Below, piece after piece: positions 42,850 to 51,087 of a stretch of 64,000 nucleotides of DNA (its first letter is position 1; each line of letters opens with the position of its first letter). The notes beneath the pieces are model-generated. The model ran no database searches. It saw nothing but the letters and a program-made list of their open reading frames with translations, and was not told where the DNA came from. Origin of the DNA: Dipodascopsis uninucleata var. uninucleata. Taxonomy: Eukaryota; Ascomycota; Lipomycetes; Lipomycetales; Lipomycetaceae. The DNA is taken from the NCBI GenBank assembly GCA_030568195.1, contig JAJLTO010000001.1:1612001-1676000 (forward strand), written 5' to 3'. The position numbers and the translations under genes are program-made.

Positions 42850-44727
42850 GGTTATATATTATGTTGTCCACCAGCTCTATCTTAGAAACTCCTGTGGTTG
42901 CTATGAGATAGAGATCAAGATATATGAAAACTCCAGAATTCCTCTTGAGCCGACCGTGATCTCACATCCCGCATCAACATATTTATGGTTTAGGGTTATC
43001 ATATGTTGAGTTGGTAGCAACTTAACTCCTGTTGGACAAAACTAGAAAGGAAGGAGGATGAGTTTTTTTATACCAAGAGCTCATACTATTTAGACAATCG
43101 ATAGAAGTAAGATAGGTCACTTATTGCTGGGATTGTCTGTATATTGAGCCGAATAAGAACTAGGTATTGCGTAGCACGAGGTAGCCAGATAACGACGTAA
43201 AGTTCAGATCCTAGCAAGAGTACTTATACAGTGACGCTTTCTACTGTTATCTTACTGTGCTGCAAAAAAGGAACGTGCACAGTAGAATAAAGCTTCACTG
43301 TGGAGTTTCTCTTATGTAATGACACTATGAGAGCCTAGAATTATAGCTTAAAATCTTTATCGCTTGGGATCTGAGTTGCAGCGTAGGCGAAGCATTGCCC
43401 TTCTACTCTAACCTTGCGAGAGCGAACCTTGAGTTCCGAGTTTCCAGGTAGATGGCGCGGTCCTTTTACGTCATAGCATAAAAACTGGAGCTTCATTATT
43501 GCGACAGCGAAGGTAATCTACCAAATCGTGTTTAAACAGCAGCCACGTAATTATGCCACACGCGGTCGTGGTTGAAATGACATCTCGCTCGTTCAATATG
43601 ATCCTTGCAGGTAGTCTGTAGCTGCTCACTGTACCAGGTACGTTTTTCCCCATATATTTATTGTTATTTGCCTCTATTTCAAATTATAGATACACAATTT
43701 GAGTATTCGGCAGTTTTATGTCGGTAGCTTATGCTGTATTTCGCTCATTTCAATTTTTTTTACCGTCCACGTCTACCACGTGAACCAAGTTTAAGTTTTG
43801 GTTAAGGGTATATTAGCGAGCATTGTTCGCAGCGCCTAAAGTCAAAACAACATAAGGCCGAAGAGTAATGCGGGGTCTGCCATCCATGCAGCCTACAAAA
43901 TGGGTAGAATCATGAAACGAAGGTCCAAAAAGGTTCTGCATTTATTTAGATTGCACATATATTACAGGACCCGCTATACTTTAATTGTTGGCCTATGGCG
44001 CAAGATCCCCGAGAAAGACAAGGTAAAGTTCGCGCCAACGTTGAGCCGACCTGGAGAAGCGGAAAGAAATGCAGCAGCAATTCTACTGACTTCTAAATTG
44101 CTGAAATGGAGATGTTTTACTATAGTATGACGTATATCAATGCGTAAATAAGTATCTCAGCCAACATAAATCTCCTATTGAGCTACTTGTAGACTGCTTC
44201 ACAAAGCTGAAACTTGGACTCATGTCTCGTATATATGCACGCATTGATTCCGATTATCCGGTTGACTACATCAACGGTAATTGTATCAATGTAAGAGTAA
44301 CAAGCCAAATGCTTGTTAAAAGGGAAGAAATTATAAGTGTTCTCAGTAAAATACTGACCCTACTGTCAATAGCCAGAAAGGAAGTCGGATGATTCTAAGT
44401 ATCCGACGGTAAATTTGCAAGCTTACCCCACATACTGCGATAGATCAAGAAAGCTAAAGTGTATATCACTGCACAGCGATCAAGTGGGATGTGTCATCCA
44501 TATTACGAACACTTACTATTATTATTCTAAAATAAGGTATGTTATCATGTTTTGCGCCTCTTAGAGGAATATAAGAAGATAAATACTGCTCATCGACCAC
44601 TACTCGCTGTTAAGGATAGCAAGAGTTTTAGCTAGCCAGACACCTCACAATAGTCATAAAATATTTGACAAATTTTCGTAGTCCATATTCCAATCCCCTC
44701 AATCCAAACATATTTGTTAAAGCAACA
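42850..44727. other. Long divergent promoter region
   Basis: 1878 bp between the DIA2-like gene and the FHS permease. It includes the CGGAT palindrome at 44384-44407 and a single CACGTG near 43787. An ATG-started ORF of 76 codons at 43900-44130 is basic and unlike any family I know; not accepted as a gene. Confidence 0.5.
44384..44407. promoter_or_regulatory. CGGAT palindrome upstream of FHS permease
   Basis: GTCGGAT (44384-44390), 10-bp spacer, ATCCGAC (44401-44407): a perfect 7-bp inverted repeat about 320 bp before the permease ATG. The half-site CGGAT recurs in the palindrome before the ARA2-like gene; CGG triplets in inverted orientation are typical of Zn2Cys6 dimers. Confidence 0.55.
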
Positions 44728-46356
44728 ATGAAATGGCCAACGTTACGGGCACGAGACGATCGCATAACCAGTGGTGCGACTCTAACTATCAGGCAATCCC
44801 TGCTTCCGATCTGCCTTGTTACCATGCTCTTCTTTCTATGGGTAGGTAGTCGTTGGTCTCACAAAAAAATTCGATGGATTCTCTATAGCAGAAACTAACT
44901 TGACTATAGGGATTTGCTTATGGTTTGCTGGATGTCCTAAATAAACATTTTCAGGTATGATAATTGGTCGAAATCTTGATTCTTTGTCATTGAAACTAAT
45001 CGAAACATAGACTTCTCTTAATATCACGAGAGCCCGTAGTTCTGGCCTCCAGGCAGCTTACTTTGGGTATAACATATTTTATTTTTAATTTTATATTATA
45101 ATTCTAATGGATGGTTGTAGCGCTTATCCCGTTGCTTCGCTCACTTTTGCAGGCTGGACTCTTCGAAAAGTTGGATATCGAGCAACATTTATCCTTGGAC
45201 TCACTTTATACGGTATAGGCGCGCTCCTCTTTATGCCAGCTGCTATAAAGAGATCATTCGGTGGATTCTGTGGAGCAACATTTGTAATTGGATCTGGACT
45301 TGGAACTCTCGAGAGTGCAGCCAATCCATATCTTGCTGTTTGTGGTCCACCAAGATATTCCGAAGTCCGTCTCAACATTGCCCAAGCCTTCCAAGGCGTT
45401 GGAACTGTCGTCGGACCAATTCTCGCTTCTTATGTCTTCTTCAAGAATACTACAGAAAATTCTCTTGATTCTGTCAAATGGGTCTATGTAGGAATTGCTG
45501 GATTCGTTTTCTTACTCGCTCTTGTGTTCTATTTCAGTAACATTCCTGAAATCACTGATGCTGATATGGAGCACCAGATGGTCTCTACTCAGGGCGAAGC
45601 GAATGATAAACCGATATATAAAGAATATACGCTTATGCTTGCGTCTATTTCCCAGTTTCTATACATTGGAGCTCAAGGTAAGTGATCAATTTGTCGATTT
45701 GATTTTGGTAGTTTTTTTGTCTAACGGAGGCAGTATCGCTTGCAACCTATTTCATCAACTATGCAACTGAAGTCAGGCCCGGAACATCTAGTTCCGATGG
45801 CTCCAACTTTCTTGCAATTGCACAAGGCTGTTTTTCTATCGGTCGATTTATAGGTAGCGCAATTATGAAATATGTTAAGCCTCGATATGCCTTGCAAGCA
45901 TATCTCACATGTGCTATAATTAGCATATCGCTTGCTATTGGTCTGAAGAAAAATGCAGGTCTGGCTCTTCTAATGGTTACTTTGTTCTTTGAATCAATCT
46001 GTTTTCCGACGATCTTTGCCTTAGGAATCAGAGGACTTGGTGCCAACACAAAGCTTGGCTCATCTTTCATCATCTCTGCAATTATTGGAGGAGCTATTGG
46101 TCCACCAATAACTGGCGCAGTATCTGACAAGCTTAATAGCAAGCAGCATGCCTTTTTCATTCCACTTATATTCTTTGTGGTAGCGCAAATTTTCCCTTGT
46201 GCCTGCAATTTTCATGCAAAGACTAGAAAACTTATGGACGACTTCTCTGAGAGTACAGTGGGTGTGACTGGTGCTGATGCTAACTCTAACGATATTAGTG
46301 ATATCAAAATGGAAGAGGACAGGGTGGAGAATATTAACTCAAATATCGAAAAATAA
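44728..46356 (+). CDS. FHS-family sugar/H+ symporter (L-fucose permease type)
   Basis: Five exons: 44728-44841, 44910-44954, 45011-45066, 45121-45677 and 45734-46356, giving 464 residues. The fucose-galactose-glucose/H+ symporter family is shown by LLPICLVTMLFFLWGFAYGL, then LDVLNKHFQ, the block SSGLQAAYFGAYPVASL, and GLGTLESAANPYLAVCGPP. The second half opens with a long cytosolic loop and has GCFSIGRFIGSAIM. Family members import L-fucose, D-arabinose, D-glucose or D-galactose. The upstream in-frame extension begins only at a TTG, so the ATG at 44728 is used. Exons 2 and 3 are just 45 and 56 nt. The gene is tail to tail with a Zn2Cys6 regulator and close to an ARA2-type dehydrogenase, which suggests one sugar pathway. 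Confidence 0.88.
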
Positions 46357-46663
46357 GTAGACTAAGCTTATGGCAGTCATGGAAGTTGTTAATATTTGGT
46401 TTGAAAACTTTTTCTTGTATCTCCTTGAAAAATATATTTGATTTTACGAGGTTTTCATTAAGCTCTATCAGACTTAATATATTATCAAGCCACGTCCGCC
46501 ATCAGACCATCTATATATTCTCAGTAGATTTCTTCTCCGACTGGCTTCAATCTCGCTGTCGGTCTGCAAAGCCGAGCTTAGTACATTCCTAAAACTTCTC
46601 TGTGACAAAAACTTAACGTCAGAAACTAGTTCTAATATTGCTATTCTCGATAATTAAGACACA
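46357..46663. other. Convergent spacer, permease / regulator
   Basis: 307 bp between the stop codons of the FHS permease and the Zn2Cys6 regulator. No gene or element recognised. Confidence 0.5.
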
Positions 46664-49017
46664 TCATACCTGATATTCCGTGTTCAACGTGGCAACGCAA
46701 ACCTCGTATGCTCTAATGACCGTTTCACATGCCTTTCCTATAATATCTTCTGATTCGTATTTTTGACGATCAGCGCACAATATAAACATAAAACTGCCAT
46801 GTAATAGATATATTCCAAAAGTGTAGGGCATGTATCTCATCTCCGAGTCGTATTTCAAAATATCAGAGATAGAATTGGCAGCTGCGACTGCGTGATTCAT
46901 GCATTTCAAAAACGCACCAGATTCGATCCAATTGTCTTCATTATCCAGCATGCTTATAGGATCCCATTTTCCGTACAATAAAATATATAGTACATGAAGT
47001 ATATAAGTGCTGTATGCTATTGTAACTTGTTTGTTTTCTGGCAGATAACTTGTGTGATACGAACTAAAGGCAAATTGCTTCAAAGAATCTTCTGCTGATC
47101 TTAAAAGTTTCTCTATATTTTCCGTGGCAGCGTCATCTCTAATATTACGTAGCCTTGGATGACACTGGCGATGATGGGTTACAATAATATCCCCAAGGAG
47201 TGCCATAAGAGGTAGAAAATGTTCGAAGAATCCGCATCCTGTAATAGAAAGTGGCGGACCATACTGTCGCGAATACTGCAGCGCAGAGAGTTCTGGGTCC
47301 ATCTCCTGCCACGACTGTTCATCCAATGGACAAAATACTGAGCATTCACTGTCTTGGATATTAAGAGGCGCATTGAAAGATAATGAAAGATGTCTATCCA
47401 CGGCATATAGAAGCCACCACACTCTTCTTCTCTCTTCTTTCGTTTCCTCTTTCAAGACATAACGATATGACCTAGTTATACTGTCCTCTACATTATCATA
47501 ATCTAGATCCTCTAGTCCGGCGGGAACCTCTTTATGTAAATTTTGTTCGCGAGCAAGCTCAATCGTCCGATGCCACCATTTTAGGCAGTCTCTCTTAGGT
47601 TCTCCACTCGATACTACAATTGATACTAATGCGAGAGTCAAAACCTCATCTGGGGAGCCTTCAGATACTCTGTTATTATCGCAATAGATCAAGTCTTTCT
47701 TTTTGTCCAATAATTCAGATTCAGTTCCTTTCTCTTCTAACAATCGACAACATAATTTGAATAAATCATCGCATGCATTCTTTCGTGACACTGTGGACTG
47801 AAATATCTTTAGATTCGAAGTTTGAGCTCCAACCCAGAGAATGCAAGCCAGCAGAGCTGGAGATGTAGTTCGTGGTGACGTCTTGTGAAGGAAGGAGCTC
47901 TTGCGAAACACACTTGTTAATACGAATGGAGATGCATAGTGTGAGATAGATCCTGAGGGAACTGTGAAGTATAAATCCAGAAGATTACACGCCGTACTCA
48001 GAGATATTATACCCTGTAAGTAAGGCACAAGGCACCGTAAAACAGGATATTTGTAAGAAGATGTATTATCAGCGCGCATATCTGACATTGCTGGCGGCTG
48101 ATTACTTATGCCTGGTCGATATTCTGCATGTGTATCGTGATATCCTAGCAGTCTAGCTCTAGAAGTAGTAATTAAAGGTGAAGATGGATTTCTGATATTT
48201 GATGTCTCTTCTGCGGCGTTATTGATCGAATTCGCATCTGACACCACAGAAAACATCCCTACGAGCGACATCTCGTTAGACTTGAACGACTTTGAGTTAA
48301 TTGGCTCGGAAGACTCAGTATCTCGACTCGAGTGATTAGTTTGCTGCCCTAGTATAGAGTGAGGCGGGGACGCAGAACTAGCAGAGAGATCAGATGACCA
48401 GTGCTGTAAAAATGGGCTTTCTGGTGCGCAGCTGGATAAGTTTGATTCAAGCGGACCAATGCCGCGAAGGAACTCCGGAGTGTCTCTTACGTCGCTACTG
48501 GTAATCAAATCATTAAAAGGATCCGGTTCTTCTAGCTCTTTTGATATTGGATCACCGCATGAATTGCCTGTCCTTTGACCCGCGTTACTCGTAGGAGTAG
48601 CCAACGACTTTGCTATCCGACCGCGCCTCTTAGGCTGACGAGTGTATTGACAAACTCGATTATAATCTATAGCAGGGCTTAATAATTACTTTCTCCTTAC
48701 TATCATATCTAGCTTTGGGATTAGTGAATCGTACCTATACAATGCTGGCTGATAGGATCAAACTTGTCATTAGCAAAGTCTTCTTATCGCATCTCTACAT
48801 CAGAGCAATGTAAAAAACCCAATATCACTTACCACGGATGTGCACCTGTACACCTTGTTCGGGAGATACTGCATTGGTCGCACGCACGCTTTATGCGCTT
48901 TCGCTCACGAAGCGACCCAGAGCCGTTAGTCTGACTGGCTACTGAAGTTGGTCCGACTACAACAGCATCGTGAGTATGAGGAGATACTCCCGTCACTTTT
49001 TCAGCAGTAGGAGACAT
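46664..49017 (-). CDS. Zn2Cys6 transcription factor, XlnR/AraR type
   Basis: Three exons: 48833-49017, 48735-48748 and 46664-48666, giving 733 residues. Splicing builds a complete zinc cluster with spacing C-x2-C-x6-C-x5-C-x2-C-x6-C: CDQCSISRTRCTGAHP, then CQHCIDYNRVC, followed by the basic QPKRRGRIAKS. The 14-nt middle exon is essential because it carries part of the fourth and all of the fifth cysteine. The fungal transcription factor domain (PF04082) lies at about 240-480; the segment ERRRVWWLLYAVDRHLSLSF followed by a Pro-Leu and an acidic Cys closely resembles XlnR/Xyr1 and AraR, the regulators of pentose and hemicellulose use. N-terminus and 80-200 are Ser/Pro-rich and disordered. It is divergent from the ARA2-like gene and a likely regulator of the flanking sugar genes. 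Confidence 0.86.
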
Positions 49018-50028
49018 CTTAATATGCTATACTAATAATTTAATGTGTTATTTGCCATCTATCTCCCTTTTTCTAACACCTGACTAAGATTTGGGAATCT
49101 TAGGATACATCTTCATAGCACTATTCCCCGCACTACAAGTGTTGCAATTCGAAGGTTTAGAAAATCATGCATGCGATGAGACGACCCAATCTTAAGTATT
49201 TTAAAGTTTATAAGTCATGTGACTCGTATAGATCTTTAGCAATCATCAAGAAAGCAACGCAGTACTGAGATAGATCCACAGAAATATTCTCAGTAGTGGA
49301 GTATAGACGAAGTAAGATGACCCGCTGTGATGTCTTGTTCTACTATCTTATTATATGGTAGATATATGGTTGCTGTTATTGGCGTAGTCAGACGACTGAA
49401 ACGATCGTGTGTATGTTGAACTCAAGACCGAATAGGATCGTATTTCAAGAACATAAGGTATATGGCTTGTATTGTACGTTCGTCACATCAGTTCTTGGTG
49501 TGACTAGACACAGCGGTTTCCGAGGTTCACAGCTACTATACTCACAAAGACGCCTAAACTAAAGCTCATCTGACTTACCCATAACGTTAGATCAGAAAGT
49601 TGTACACTGTCGCAAACTGGCATTTCTATGCAAACATTAAGAATGTAGAACTAGATTATAGGGTTATGTTTTTCTGCTCATAATTTTCTTTTAAGCAGCA
49701 AATTCGGGCTATTCTATAGGCGAGGAAGAACTAAGGGTACTTAAAAGTGCTAAGAGCATTCGGGTAATTTTCAATACTTAATTGTCGTGAAGAACTTGTT
49801 GTCCGTAGGGAGATATGCTGGAAATTAGCCGTCGGTTGTGGAGTCCTGACACTCCAGTTCATTCAAAAGACGCAACTAATGCGAATACACCGCCTAGTGA
49901 GAGATCACAATGCCGGATCTCAAACTATAGATCCGGCTAGAACAGCTGATGAACTATTATTAAAGGGGCGATCCTGCAAATCAAGAACATAGCTGGTTCG
50001 TCTACTTAGATTTCGAAGCATTGTAGAA
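49018..50028. other. Divergent promoter, regulator / ARA2-like gene
   Basis: 1011 bp between start codons. It holds the palindrome at 49912-49937. No ORF of note and no tRNA. Confidence 0.55.
49912..49937. promoter_or_regulatory. CCGGATCT palindrome upstream of ARA2-like gene
   Basis: GCCGGATCT (49912-49920), 8-bp spacer, AGATCCGGC (49929-49937): a perfect 9-bp inverted repeat 91 bp before the dehydrogenase ATG. It has the same CGGAT...ATCCG half-sites as the palindrome before the FHS permease. Position and symmetry fit an operator for a Zn2Cys6 dimer. Confidence 0.6.
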
Positions 50029-51087
50029 ATGGTGGTCGCTAAAAATATTACTAATATATTACCAGGCATTGCAATAGGTGGTGGGGTGTTCAACACTCAA
50101 ATGAACGAGGATCCAGGACAGCTGCCCATTGCCCGTATTATCAAAAGAGCGTTCGACGTCGGGATCCGTGCAATTGATACTTCACCGTACTACGGTAAAT
50201 CCGAAATCCTTATCGGACAGGCACTGAGATCGCCTGAAGTCAAGAATAACTACAAACGCGAAGACTATGTGTTGATGACTAAAGCTGGGCGTGTCAGCCT
50301 TGATTCATTTGACTACTCCCAGGAGGGAATCCGTAATTCTGTTACGCGATCACTTCAGAGACTAAATACAATTTATCTGGACATTGTGTTCTGTCACGAC
50401 GTTGAATTCAATAGACCTGAAGATGCGCTAACAGCAGTTGGTACTTTGTTCAAGCTCCAAGAGGAGGGTATCATTGGATACGTTGGAATATCTGGATATC
50501 CTCCGAGCGTGCTGGTAAAGGTTATTCAAACGATAATAGCTGAATTTGGTAGGCCACCAGATGTTGTACAGAACTATGGCTGCTTCAATCTCCAGAATAC
50601 AACTCTGCTGAGCTATCTAGACGAGATCAACGCCCTTGGTGTAGGCTGTATTATCAACTCGAGTCCCTTATGTATGGGGCTTCTCTCAGGACACGCAGCC
50701 GCGGCCTTTCACCCTGCATCTGAAGGACTTCGCAACGCCTGTTTGAAATTAAGCGAATGGGCTAAACTTACAAATTACACATTGCCGGAGCTTGCTATGC
50801 GGTTTGCTATAGGCAAATGGGCTGAACTTTCATTCAAGAATGGAGGTGGAGTTATAATATCTGGTGTCAGCTATCTACACGAACTTGAAATGACAATCGA
50901 AGCATATAAAGATGTTATGTGTGTCTTGCCTAAGTCAGCTGAAGGGCAGCGATTCATTTATCCACAGGCCAGTGTAGATAAATCAAAACTAGCGGTGCTC
51001 GAGCCATACTTTCAGCAGGCTCGTGAAGTACTCGGTGACTGGGCTGACAAGTATTGGGATATGGGTAACATTAAGTGGGAGCTTTAG
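50029..51087 (+). CDS. Aldo-keto reductase, D-arabinose/L-galactose dehydrogenase type
   Basis: Single exon, 352 residues, close to yeast Ara2 (335), the NAD+-dependent D-arabinose dehydrogenase that leads to erythroascorbate. The AKR tetrad is present: Asp50 and Tyr55 in AIDTSPYYGKSE, Lys85 in LMTKAGR, and His123 in FCHDVEF. The N-terminal LPGIAIGGGVFN and the block VQNYGCFNLQNT match L-galactose, L-fucose and D-arabinose dehydrogenases. Probably cytosolic, oxidising an aldose at C1 to a lactone. It lies beside an XlnR/AraR-type regulator and an FHS permease and has a palindromic site just upstream. Whether it serves catabolism or erythroascorbate synthesis cannot be told from sequence; the cluster favours catabolism. 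Confidence 0.88.
   Translation: MVVAKNITNILPGIAIGGGVFNTQMNEDPGQLPIARIIKRAFDVGIRAIDTSPYYGKSEILIGQALRSPEVKNNYKREDYVLMTKAGRVSLDSFDYSQEGIRNSVTRSLQRLNTIYLDIVFCHDVEFNRPEDALTAVGTLFKLQEEGIIGYVGISGYPPSVLVKVIQTIIAEFGRPPDVVQNYGCFNLQNTTLLSYLDEINALGVGCIINSSPLCMGLLSGHAAAAFHPASEGLRNACLKLSEWAKLTNYTLPELAMRFAIGKWAELSFKNGGGVIISGVSYLHELEMTIEAYKDVMCVLPKSAEGQRFIYPQASVDKSKLAVLEPYFQQAREVLGDWADKYWDMGNIKWEL

What the first reader, a model, noticed from the sequence alone, without database searches (positions are those of the whole stretch)
44384..51087. Candidate self-regulated rare-sugar utilisation locus
An FHS (L-fucose-permease-type) symporter, an XlnR/AraR-type Zn2Cys6 regulator and an ARA2-type aldose dehydrogenase occur side by side within 6.4 kb. 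Each family is independently tied to sugars such as L-fucose, D-arabinose or L-galactose. The regulator is divergent from the dehydrogenase and convergent with the permease. Both structural genes have a perfect palindrome with identical CGGAT...ATCCG half-sites in the promoter. No such fungal cluster is known to me.
Basis: partly seen in the sequence, partly recalled or inferred. Interest (0 to 1): 0.78.

Follow-up and report, generated by a model that had tools for sequence, protein, structure and literature searches.

The report
Yeast L-fucose-type sugar-use gene cluster
A yeast genome carries, side by side, an importer, a switch protein and an oxidising enzyme that look like a control-and-use kit for the rare sugar L-fucose (or its close look-alike D-arabinose), with the same DNA switch sequence that a distantly related mould uses for L-fucose.

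Summary
The three genes are real and arranged as described, in Dipodascopsis uninucleata: FHS permease (+), XlnR-family Zn2Cys6 regulator (-), ARA2-type aldo/keto reductase (+). But such fungal loci are known. Trichoderma reesei FUR1 (PMC12370193) is an L-fucose regulator of the same family; FUR1 neighbourhoods hold L-fucose permeases in Fusarium and Metarhizium and a putative D-arabinose dehydrogenase in A. niger.

FUR1 binds CCGACGG. That heptamer occurs only twice in the 64-kb window, 325 and 200 bp upstream of the permease and reductase start codons. It occurs twice upstream of an unlinked L-fuconate-dehydratase-type gene and is the only 7-mer shared by the three 350-bp promoters. The regulator groups with FUR1-like proteins, apart from XlnR, AraR and its two paralogues here (100/99), although an AU test does not exclude the alternative (p 0.0585).

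Best reading: a FUR1-type regulon for oxidative, non-phosphorylative use of L-fucose or D-arabinose, with an aldo/keto reductase where T. reesei uses an SDR. Not shown: expression, growth, binding, synteny. None of four aldolase-family genes carries the motif; GH29 and GH95 searches found nothing.

The parts
44728..46356 (+). FHS-type (FucP-like) sugar:H+ symporter gene; exons 44728-44841, 44910-44954, 45011-45066, 45121-45677, 45734-46356; 464 aa
   Evidence: 100% to P0207; TIGR00885 fucP 249.1 bits, below the curated cut-off of 280.4; E. coli FucP 3o7q, E 1.1e-58; D46 and E135 of FucP aligned to D and E; only gene of its kind found in the genome
46474..49017 (-). XlnR-family Zn2Cys6 regulator gene (FUR1-side clade); exons 49017-48833, 48748-48735, 48666-46670, 46599-46474; 773 aa; the NCBI model of 733 aa lacks the last exon
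50029..51087 (+). ARA2/L-galactose-dehydrogenase-type aldo/keto reductase, 352 aa, D50/Y55/K85/H123 present (that these form the AKR tetrad is recalled)
   Evidence: separate from the second ARA2-type copy P0196
44403..44409 (+).
49829..49835 (-). CCGACGG, 200 bp upstream of the reductase ATG, 812 bp from the regulator ATG; runs into GGCTAA (CCGACGGCTAA)

Best explanation
A FUR1-type sugar regulon. The FHS symporter imports L-fucose or a sugar of the same C2-C4 configuration (D-arabinose, L-galactose). The sugar, or a product of it, activates the XlnR-family regulator, which binds CCGACGG upstream of the permease, the reductase and an unlinked L-fuconate/L-galactonate-type dehydratase. The aldo/keto reductase oxidises the sugar to its lactone; after hydrolysis the acid is dehydrated, and a DHDPS-type aldolase is inferred to cleave the keto-deoxy acid to pyruvate plus lactaldehyde (L-fucose) or glycolaldehyde (D-arabinose). 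Shown here: genes, arrangement, family membership, motif positions, and a fuconate-dehydratase-family gene in the genome. Inferred: substrates, induction, binding, lactone hydrolysis and the aldolase step. L-fucose as the main substrate about 0.55, D-arabinose about 0.3.
For: FUR1 of T. reesei is the closest T. reesei homologue of XYR1, is essential for L-fucose growth, and its binding domain binds CCGACGG by EMSA (PMC12370193). The window has exactly two CCGACGG, both in the structural promoters. The genome has 437. The dehydratase gene (C14:129546-131013) has two, at -309 and -202, and matches solved L-fuconate dehydratases and human ENOSF1 at E 1.6e-139 to 1.4e-143. CCGACGG is the only 7-mer shared by the three 350-bp promoters; 6 of 2000 random triples of windows had an equally unlikely shared word. 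3 of 12 candidate promoters carry a site, P 4.8e-4 at 500 bp. The regulator is in a 14-row clade at 100/99, apart from XlnR, AraR and the two D. uninucleata paralogues. P0061, P0063 and P0064 in that clade have I and S at the positions that correspond to FUR1 I757 and S760. P0002, the best non-self hit, is one gene model fused to a GH29 alpha-L-fucosidase. The permease is the only FHS gene found and is FucP-like.
Against: None of the 4 DHDPS-family genes found has CCGACGG in its promoter, although lga1 is a FUR1 target in T. reesei. No hit to PF01120 (GH29) or PF14498 (GH95 N-terminal domain). At the two FUR1 positions the window protein has V and A, as XYR1/XlnR do. Forcing the regulator to the XlnR/AraR side costs only 5.59 log units (AU p 0.0585), and its branch is long. 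T. reesei FUR1 itself was not in the trees. The clade also holds four Aspergillus proteins with L and T at those positions, possibly GalR (recalled), so clade alone does not fix the sugar. The permease scores below the fucP curated cut-off. Two CCGACGG in 64 kb is no excess in itself (48 of 100 shuffles reach it). One further ORF-gene among the 56 of a 164-kb background also has a site within 600 bp upstream.
Confidence: 0.72

Rival explanations
1. Same regulon, but the physiological sugar is D-arabinose (or L-galactose), with L-fucose a side substrate. The reductase makes D-arabinono-lactone and the dehydratase acts on D-arabonate.
For: The reductase is of the ARA2/L-galactose dehydrogenase type; some homologues are named D-arabinose 1-dehydrogenase by their sources. 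PMC12370193 says that A. niger has its FUR1 orthologue beside a putative D-arabinose dehydrogenase and lacks L-fucose use, and that T. reesei LGD1 was reported active on D-arabonate. GH29/GH95 fucosidases not found.
Against: The permease is closest in solved structures to E. coli L-fucose symporter and scores higher for fucP than for gluP; T. reesei growth on D-arabinose and L-galactose does not depend on FUR1.
Confidence: 0.3
2. D-erythroascorbate synthesis rather than catabolism: the reductase is the housekeeping ARA2 enzyme and the neighbours are incidental.
For: ARA2-type family; the reductase groups with other yeast and Pezizomycetes copies.
Against: A second ARA2-type gene, P0196, matches the nearest solved relative 8k1i much better and over its whole length (281 against 189 bits), which makes P0196 the likelier housekeeping copy (inference; S. 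cerevisiae Ara2 was not compared). Shared CCGACGG in permease and dehydratase promoters.
Confidence: 0.08
3. Chance neighbourhood: three sugar-related genes happen to be adjacent, and the CCGACGG and palindromes are coincidences.
For: Single genome; no synteny test was possible; the palindromes alone are weak.
Against: CCGACGG is the only 7-mer common to three promoters, and it was defined by others in another fungus; the best non-self regulator hit is fused in its gene model to a fucosidase.
Confidence: 0.1
4. The regulator is a galactose (GalR-like) or pentose regulator, and the permease a glucose/galactose-type FHS carrier.
For: Aspergillus proteins P0018, P0033, P0041, P0045, possibly GalR (recalled), lie in the same clade; the permease also matches gluP (164.6 bits, cut-off 202.55).
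Against: fucP scores higher than gluP (249.1 against 164.6 bits, both below their cut-offs); the dehydratase with two CCGACGG sites belongs to acid-dehydratase, not Leloir, metabolism (pathway knowledge recalled).
Confidence: 0.1

Closest known systems
T. reesei FUR1 / FDH1 / LGD1 L-fucose regulon (PMC12370193)
   Same: XlnR-family regulator beside the first oxidoreductase; CCGACGG upstream of targets; an L-fucose permease gene and an LGD1-type dehydratase in the regulated set
   Different: First enzyme here is an aldo/keto reductase, not an SDR; permease is adjacent; no GH29/GH95 found; DHDPS-type genes lack the motif; organism is a Saccharomycotina yeast (the paper names orthologues in Sordariomycetes and Eurotiomycetes and elsewhere says they are widespread in ascomycetes)
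FUR1 neighbourhoods of Fusarium oxysporum and Metarhizium robertsii, as stated in PMC12370193
   Same: Regulator with putative L-fucose permease gene in the neighbourhood
   Different: Putative alpha-L-fucosidase genes are there too; no reductase of the ARA2 type is mentioned in what I read
A. niger FUR1 orthologue An11g06290 with An11g06280 (putative D-arabinose dehydrogenase), as stated in PMC12370193
   Same: FUR1-type regulator next to a putative D-arabinose dehydrogenase
   Different: No permease mentioned there; the protein family of An11g06280 was not checked by me
E. coli FucP L-fucose:H+ symporter
   Same: FHS family; FucP D46 and E135 conserved
   Different: Below the curated fucP cut-off
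Plant L-galactose dehydrogenase / yeast ARA2 family
   Same: Sequence family, tetrad and sugar class
   Different: Divergent copy with another C-terminus; a second ARA2-type copy exists in the genome

Membership tests
FUR1-type L-fucose regulator | Zn2Cys6 cluster plus fungal-specific TF domain, XYR1/XlnR family | tested here: met
   PF00172 and PF04082 over cut-off; homologues named XlnR
FUR1-type L-fucose regulator | Groups with FUR1 and not with XlnR or AraR | tested here: inconclusive
   100/99 clade with FUR1-like proxies and 100 in a second tree, but AU p 0.0585 for the alternative, long branch, and T. reesei FUR1 sequence not available
FUR1-type L-fucose regulator | I and S at the positions of T. 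reesei FUR1 I757/S760 (my marker, not a published defining feature) | tested here: not met
   V and A in the window protein; 3 of the 14 clade rows (P0061, P0063, P0064) have the pair. Position found by counting 119 from the C-terminus (876 minus 757; XYR1 length of 940 recalled)
FUR1-type L-fucose regulator | CCGACGG in promoters of pathway genes | tested here: met
   permease, reductase and one fuconate-dehydratase-type gene yes; 0 of 4 DHDPS-type genes
FUR1-type L-fucose regulator | Binds CCGACGG and is required for L-fucose growth | not testable with these tools
   needs EMSA and a deletion strain
FUR1 locus of T. reesei | Adjacent SDR L-fucose dehydrogenase (FDH1) | tested here: not met
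   the adjacent oxidoreductase is PF00248 aldo/keto reductase; an FDH1-type SDR elsewhere in the genome was not searched for
FHS / FucP symporters | FucP homology with D46 and E135 | tested here: met
   that these two residues matter for transport is recalled
FHS / FucP symporters | TIGR00885 fucP equivalog cut-off | tested here: not met
   249.1 bits against 280.4
ARA2 / L-galactose dehydrogenase AKR family | PF00248 with D-Y-K-H tetrad | tested here: met
   tetrad recalled
L-fuconate dehydratase family (LGD1/ENOSF1) | Near full-length match of the C14 gene product to L-fuconate dehydratases | tested here: met
   residues 7-436 of 450 match 1yey, 2hxt, 2hne, 2hxu and ENOSF1 4a35, E 1.6e-139 to 1.4e-143; the top hit, 4ip4 (9.7e-157), is named only as MR/MLE-like. 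Activity not testable

The most novel reading that the evidence does not exclude
The CCGACGG/FUR1-type L-fucose (or D-arabinose) regulon is older than the split between budding yeasts and filamentous ascomycetes. Its original first enzyme was an ARA2-type aldo/keto reductase next to the regulator, as here and possibly in A. niger, and T. reesei later replaced it with an unrelated SDR while keeping regulator, DNA site, permease and dehydratase.
Probability: 0.3. Interest if true: 0.68.

Novelty: new variant of a known kind. Interest (0 to 1): 0.55.

Why it matters
By its authors' account (PMC12370193, abstract), fungal L-fucose sensing and use got its first molecular description in 2025, in one mould. 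A compact yeast version with permease, regulator and an aldo/keto reductase in 6.4 kb, and the same DNA site in a third unlinked gene, makes the pathway easy to test and suggests that the regulator-site pair is ancient while the first enzyme was exchanged. It would also give a sugar-responsive regulator and promoter pair from a yeast, and candidate parts for L-fucose use.

Tried and rejected
Palindromes as the main evidence: kept as secondary, because perfect inverted repeats are common (86 in the window with arms of 7 or more, 12 with arms of 9 or more) and the CGGAT/ATCCG spacing differs between the two (10 and 12).

Synteny in relatives: not possible. The genome collections held are prokaryotic and the metagenome cap was 0. 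Reading by eye the source names shown (86 hits; best 120 of 364; best 120 of 3791), I saw no adjacent pair of locus tags; the only physical-linkage hint is the fused gene model P0002.

I757/S760 as a diagnostic for the window protein: it is not met there, and 3 of the 14 rows of its clade have it, so it does not decide.

Two CCGACGG facing each other within 30 bp: 0 in the genome.

The C6 cluster (dehydratase, amidohydrolase, SDR-like ORF) as part of this regulon: rejected, no CCGACGG near those genes; the one site in that stretch lies 4.8 kb away, upstream of another gene.

Sixth MR_MLE_C hit (C18, 25.8 bits, below the cut-off): left out of the 12 candidates; its 3.3-kb locus L013 has no CCGACGG.

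Growth data for D. uninucleata on L-fucose or D-arabinose: none found (listings; passages of PMC11024372).
Full report
The organism. Regulator, reductase and permease match Dipodascopsis uninucleata proteins at 100, 99 and 100%. The window is C1:1612001-1676000 of a 16.2-Mb assembly in 25 contigs. The reductase differs slightly from the NCBI copy, so the assembly may be another strain (inference).

The genes. The permease has five exons. It matches E. coli FucP (3o7q, E 1.1e-58) with FucP's D46 and E135 conserved (that these residues matter for transport is recalled). Among the best 120 of 3791 homologues, those that sources call L-fucose permease or L-fucose-proton symporter are about 54-61% identical, and the best hits, from Pezizomycetes and a Leotiomycete with neutral names, reach 65%. 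It scores below the curated fucP cut-off (249.1 against 280.4 bits). It is the only FHS gene found in the genome; besides its own exons the search gave one 26% match. The regulator has PF00172 and PF04082. Its NCBI model stops after LNTEYQV; splicing a 70-base intron adds an exon (46599-46474) ending in RRRNLLRIYRWSDGGRGLIIY, which matches the conserved end of the family. The reductase is PF00248; its nearest solved relatives are 8k1i and plant L-galactose dehydrogenases. The flanking recognisable genes are an F-box protein and a Pex24p-family peroxin; two ORFs of 96 and 88 aa between the F-box gene and the permease have no Pfam match. So I take the cluster to be these three genes.

What is known. 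T. reesei FUR1 (PMC12370193; I read the abstract, all of Results, the Discussion, and found passages) is the closest T. reesei homologue of XYR1. A fur1 deletion grows poorly on L-fucose. FUR1 controls an SDR L-fucose dehydrogenase (FDH1), LGD1, LGA1 and GH95 fucosidases, and its binding domain binds CCGACGG by EMSA. The paper reports FUR1 neighbourhoods with putative fucosidases and L-fucose permeases in Fusarium and Metarhizium, and in A. niger a FUR1 orthologue beside a putative D-arabinose dehydrogenase. So the kind of locus is known. Of two papers found with FUR1, L-fucose and Trichoderma together, the second names FUR1 once, in a table (passages). In the listings (20 of 131 shown), 33, 49, 51 and 58 I saw no report of such a locus in a yeast.

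The cis element. CCGACGG occurs twice in 64 kb, 325 bp before the permease ATG and 200 bp before the reductase ATG. Two matches in the window are not unusual in number (48 of 100 shuffles had at least 2); their places are. The genome has 437, against 884 for the reversed control pattern. I then looked at downstream enzymes. Of 5 MR_MLE_C genes over cut-off, one, C14:129546-131013, matches L-fuconate dehydratases and ENOSF1 at E 1.6e-139 to 1.4e-143 and has two CCGACGG at -309 and -202. I did not compare the other four with solved structures; one of them (C21) looks similar at its N-terminus by eye and has no site. Across 12 candidate promoters (permease, reductase, 5 dehydratase-type, 4 DHDPS-type, the second ARA2-type gene), 3 have a site; binomial P 4.8e-4 for 500 bp at the genome rate, or 9.5e-6 if one counts only permease, dehydrogenase, dehydratase and one aldolase, 3 of 4. 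Comparing the three 350-bp promoters without naming a motif, the only shared 7-mer is CCGACGG; 6 of 2000 random triples of windows from the same 164 kb (coding parts included) had an equally unlikely shared word of any kind. The dehydratase was itself examined because its promoter showed the sites, so these figures carry some choice after the fact. In 164 kb holding 56 ORF-genes, only the reductase, the dehydratase and one other gene (C6:621343) have a site within 600 bp upstream; the permease escaped that proxy because of its short exons.

The regulator's kinship. In a 47-row tree it falls with 13 others at 100/99, apart from XlnR, AraR and both D. uninucleata paralogues (C3, C11); a 29-row tree agrees (100). 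Holding it on the XlnR/AraR side costs 5.59 log units, AU p 0.0585, so that is not excluded. T. reesei FUR1 was not available. Proxies are P0061, P0063 and P0064, which carry I and S at the positions corresponding to FUR1 I757/S760 (located by counting from the C-terminus; XYR1's length is recalled), while XlnR-type rows mostly carry V and A. The window protein has V and A. P0002, its best non-self hit, is fused in its gene model to a GH29 fucosidase, which suggests that the regulator gene and a fucosidase gene are neighbours in a Pseudogymnoascus (inference from the model).

The reductase. It groups with Lipomyces, Blastobotrys and Trichomonascus proteins (99) and then Pezizomycetes (93), away from the second copy P0196 (quick tree, P0196 on a long branch). 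P0196 matches 8k1i far better (281 against 189 bits) and is only 41% identical to the window copy. The simplest reading is that P0196 serves D-erythroascorbate synthesis and the window copy serves catabolism (inference).

Missing pieces. Neither GH29 (PF01120) nor the GH95 N-terminal domain (PF14498) gave a hit, so the yeast probably uses free sugar or sugar released by others; other fucosidase families were not searched. None of the four DHDPS-type genes carries CCGACGG. I did not test for an FDH1-type SDR, having no sequence of it.

Verdict. It is best read as a FUR1-type locus in an early-branching yeast, with an aldo/keto reductase in the place of the SDR.

Noticed in passing
window 46474-46669: The NCBI model of the regulator (733 aa) lacks its last exon; splicing gives the conserved C-terminus (773 aa).
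   Followed up: yes
L024 (C14:125001-135000), 129546-131013 with sites at 129237 and 129344: L-fuconate-dehydratase-type gene, unlinked to the window, with two CCGACGG just upstream of a TATA-like stretch; an aldo/keto reductase ORF lies on the opposite strand at 127383-128303.
   Followed up: partly
L026 (C6:620001-630000), 625909-629529: Dehydratase, amidohydrolase-2 and SDR-like ORF side by side, resembling the L-rhamnose (LRA) pathway cluster (recalled); no CCGACGG near them.
   Followed up: partly
L022/L023 (C21:120001-140000): A DHDPS-type gene (128563), an epimerase-like ORF by eye (129728-130783) and a second dehydratase-family gene (131210-132571) lie together without CCGACGG in the promoters.
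   Followed up: no
L020/L021 (C8:665001-685000), 673642-678132: Two dehydratase-family genes flank a DHDPS-type gene, another possible sugar-acid cluster.
   Followed up: no
protein P0002: Pseudogymnoascus gene model joins a FUR1-side regulator to a GH29 alpha-L-fucosidase with CBM6, probably two neighbouring genes.
   Followed up: partly
window 49825-49835: The CCGACGG before the reductase reads on into GGCTAA (the XlnR/XYR1-type core), so one site could serve two regulators of the family.
   Followed up: no
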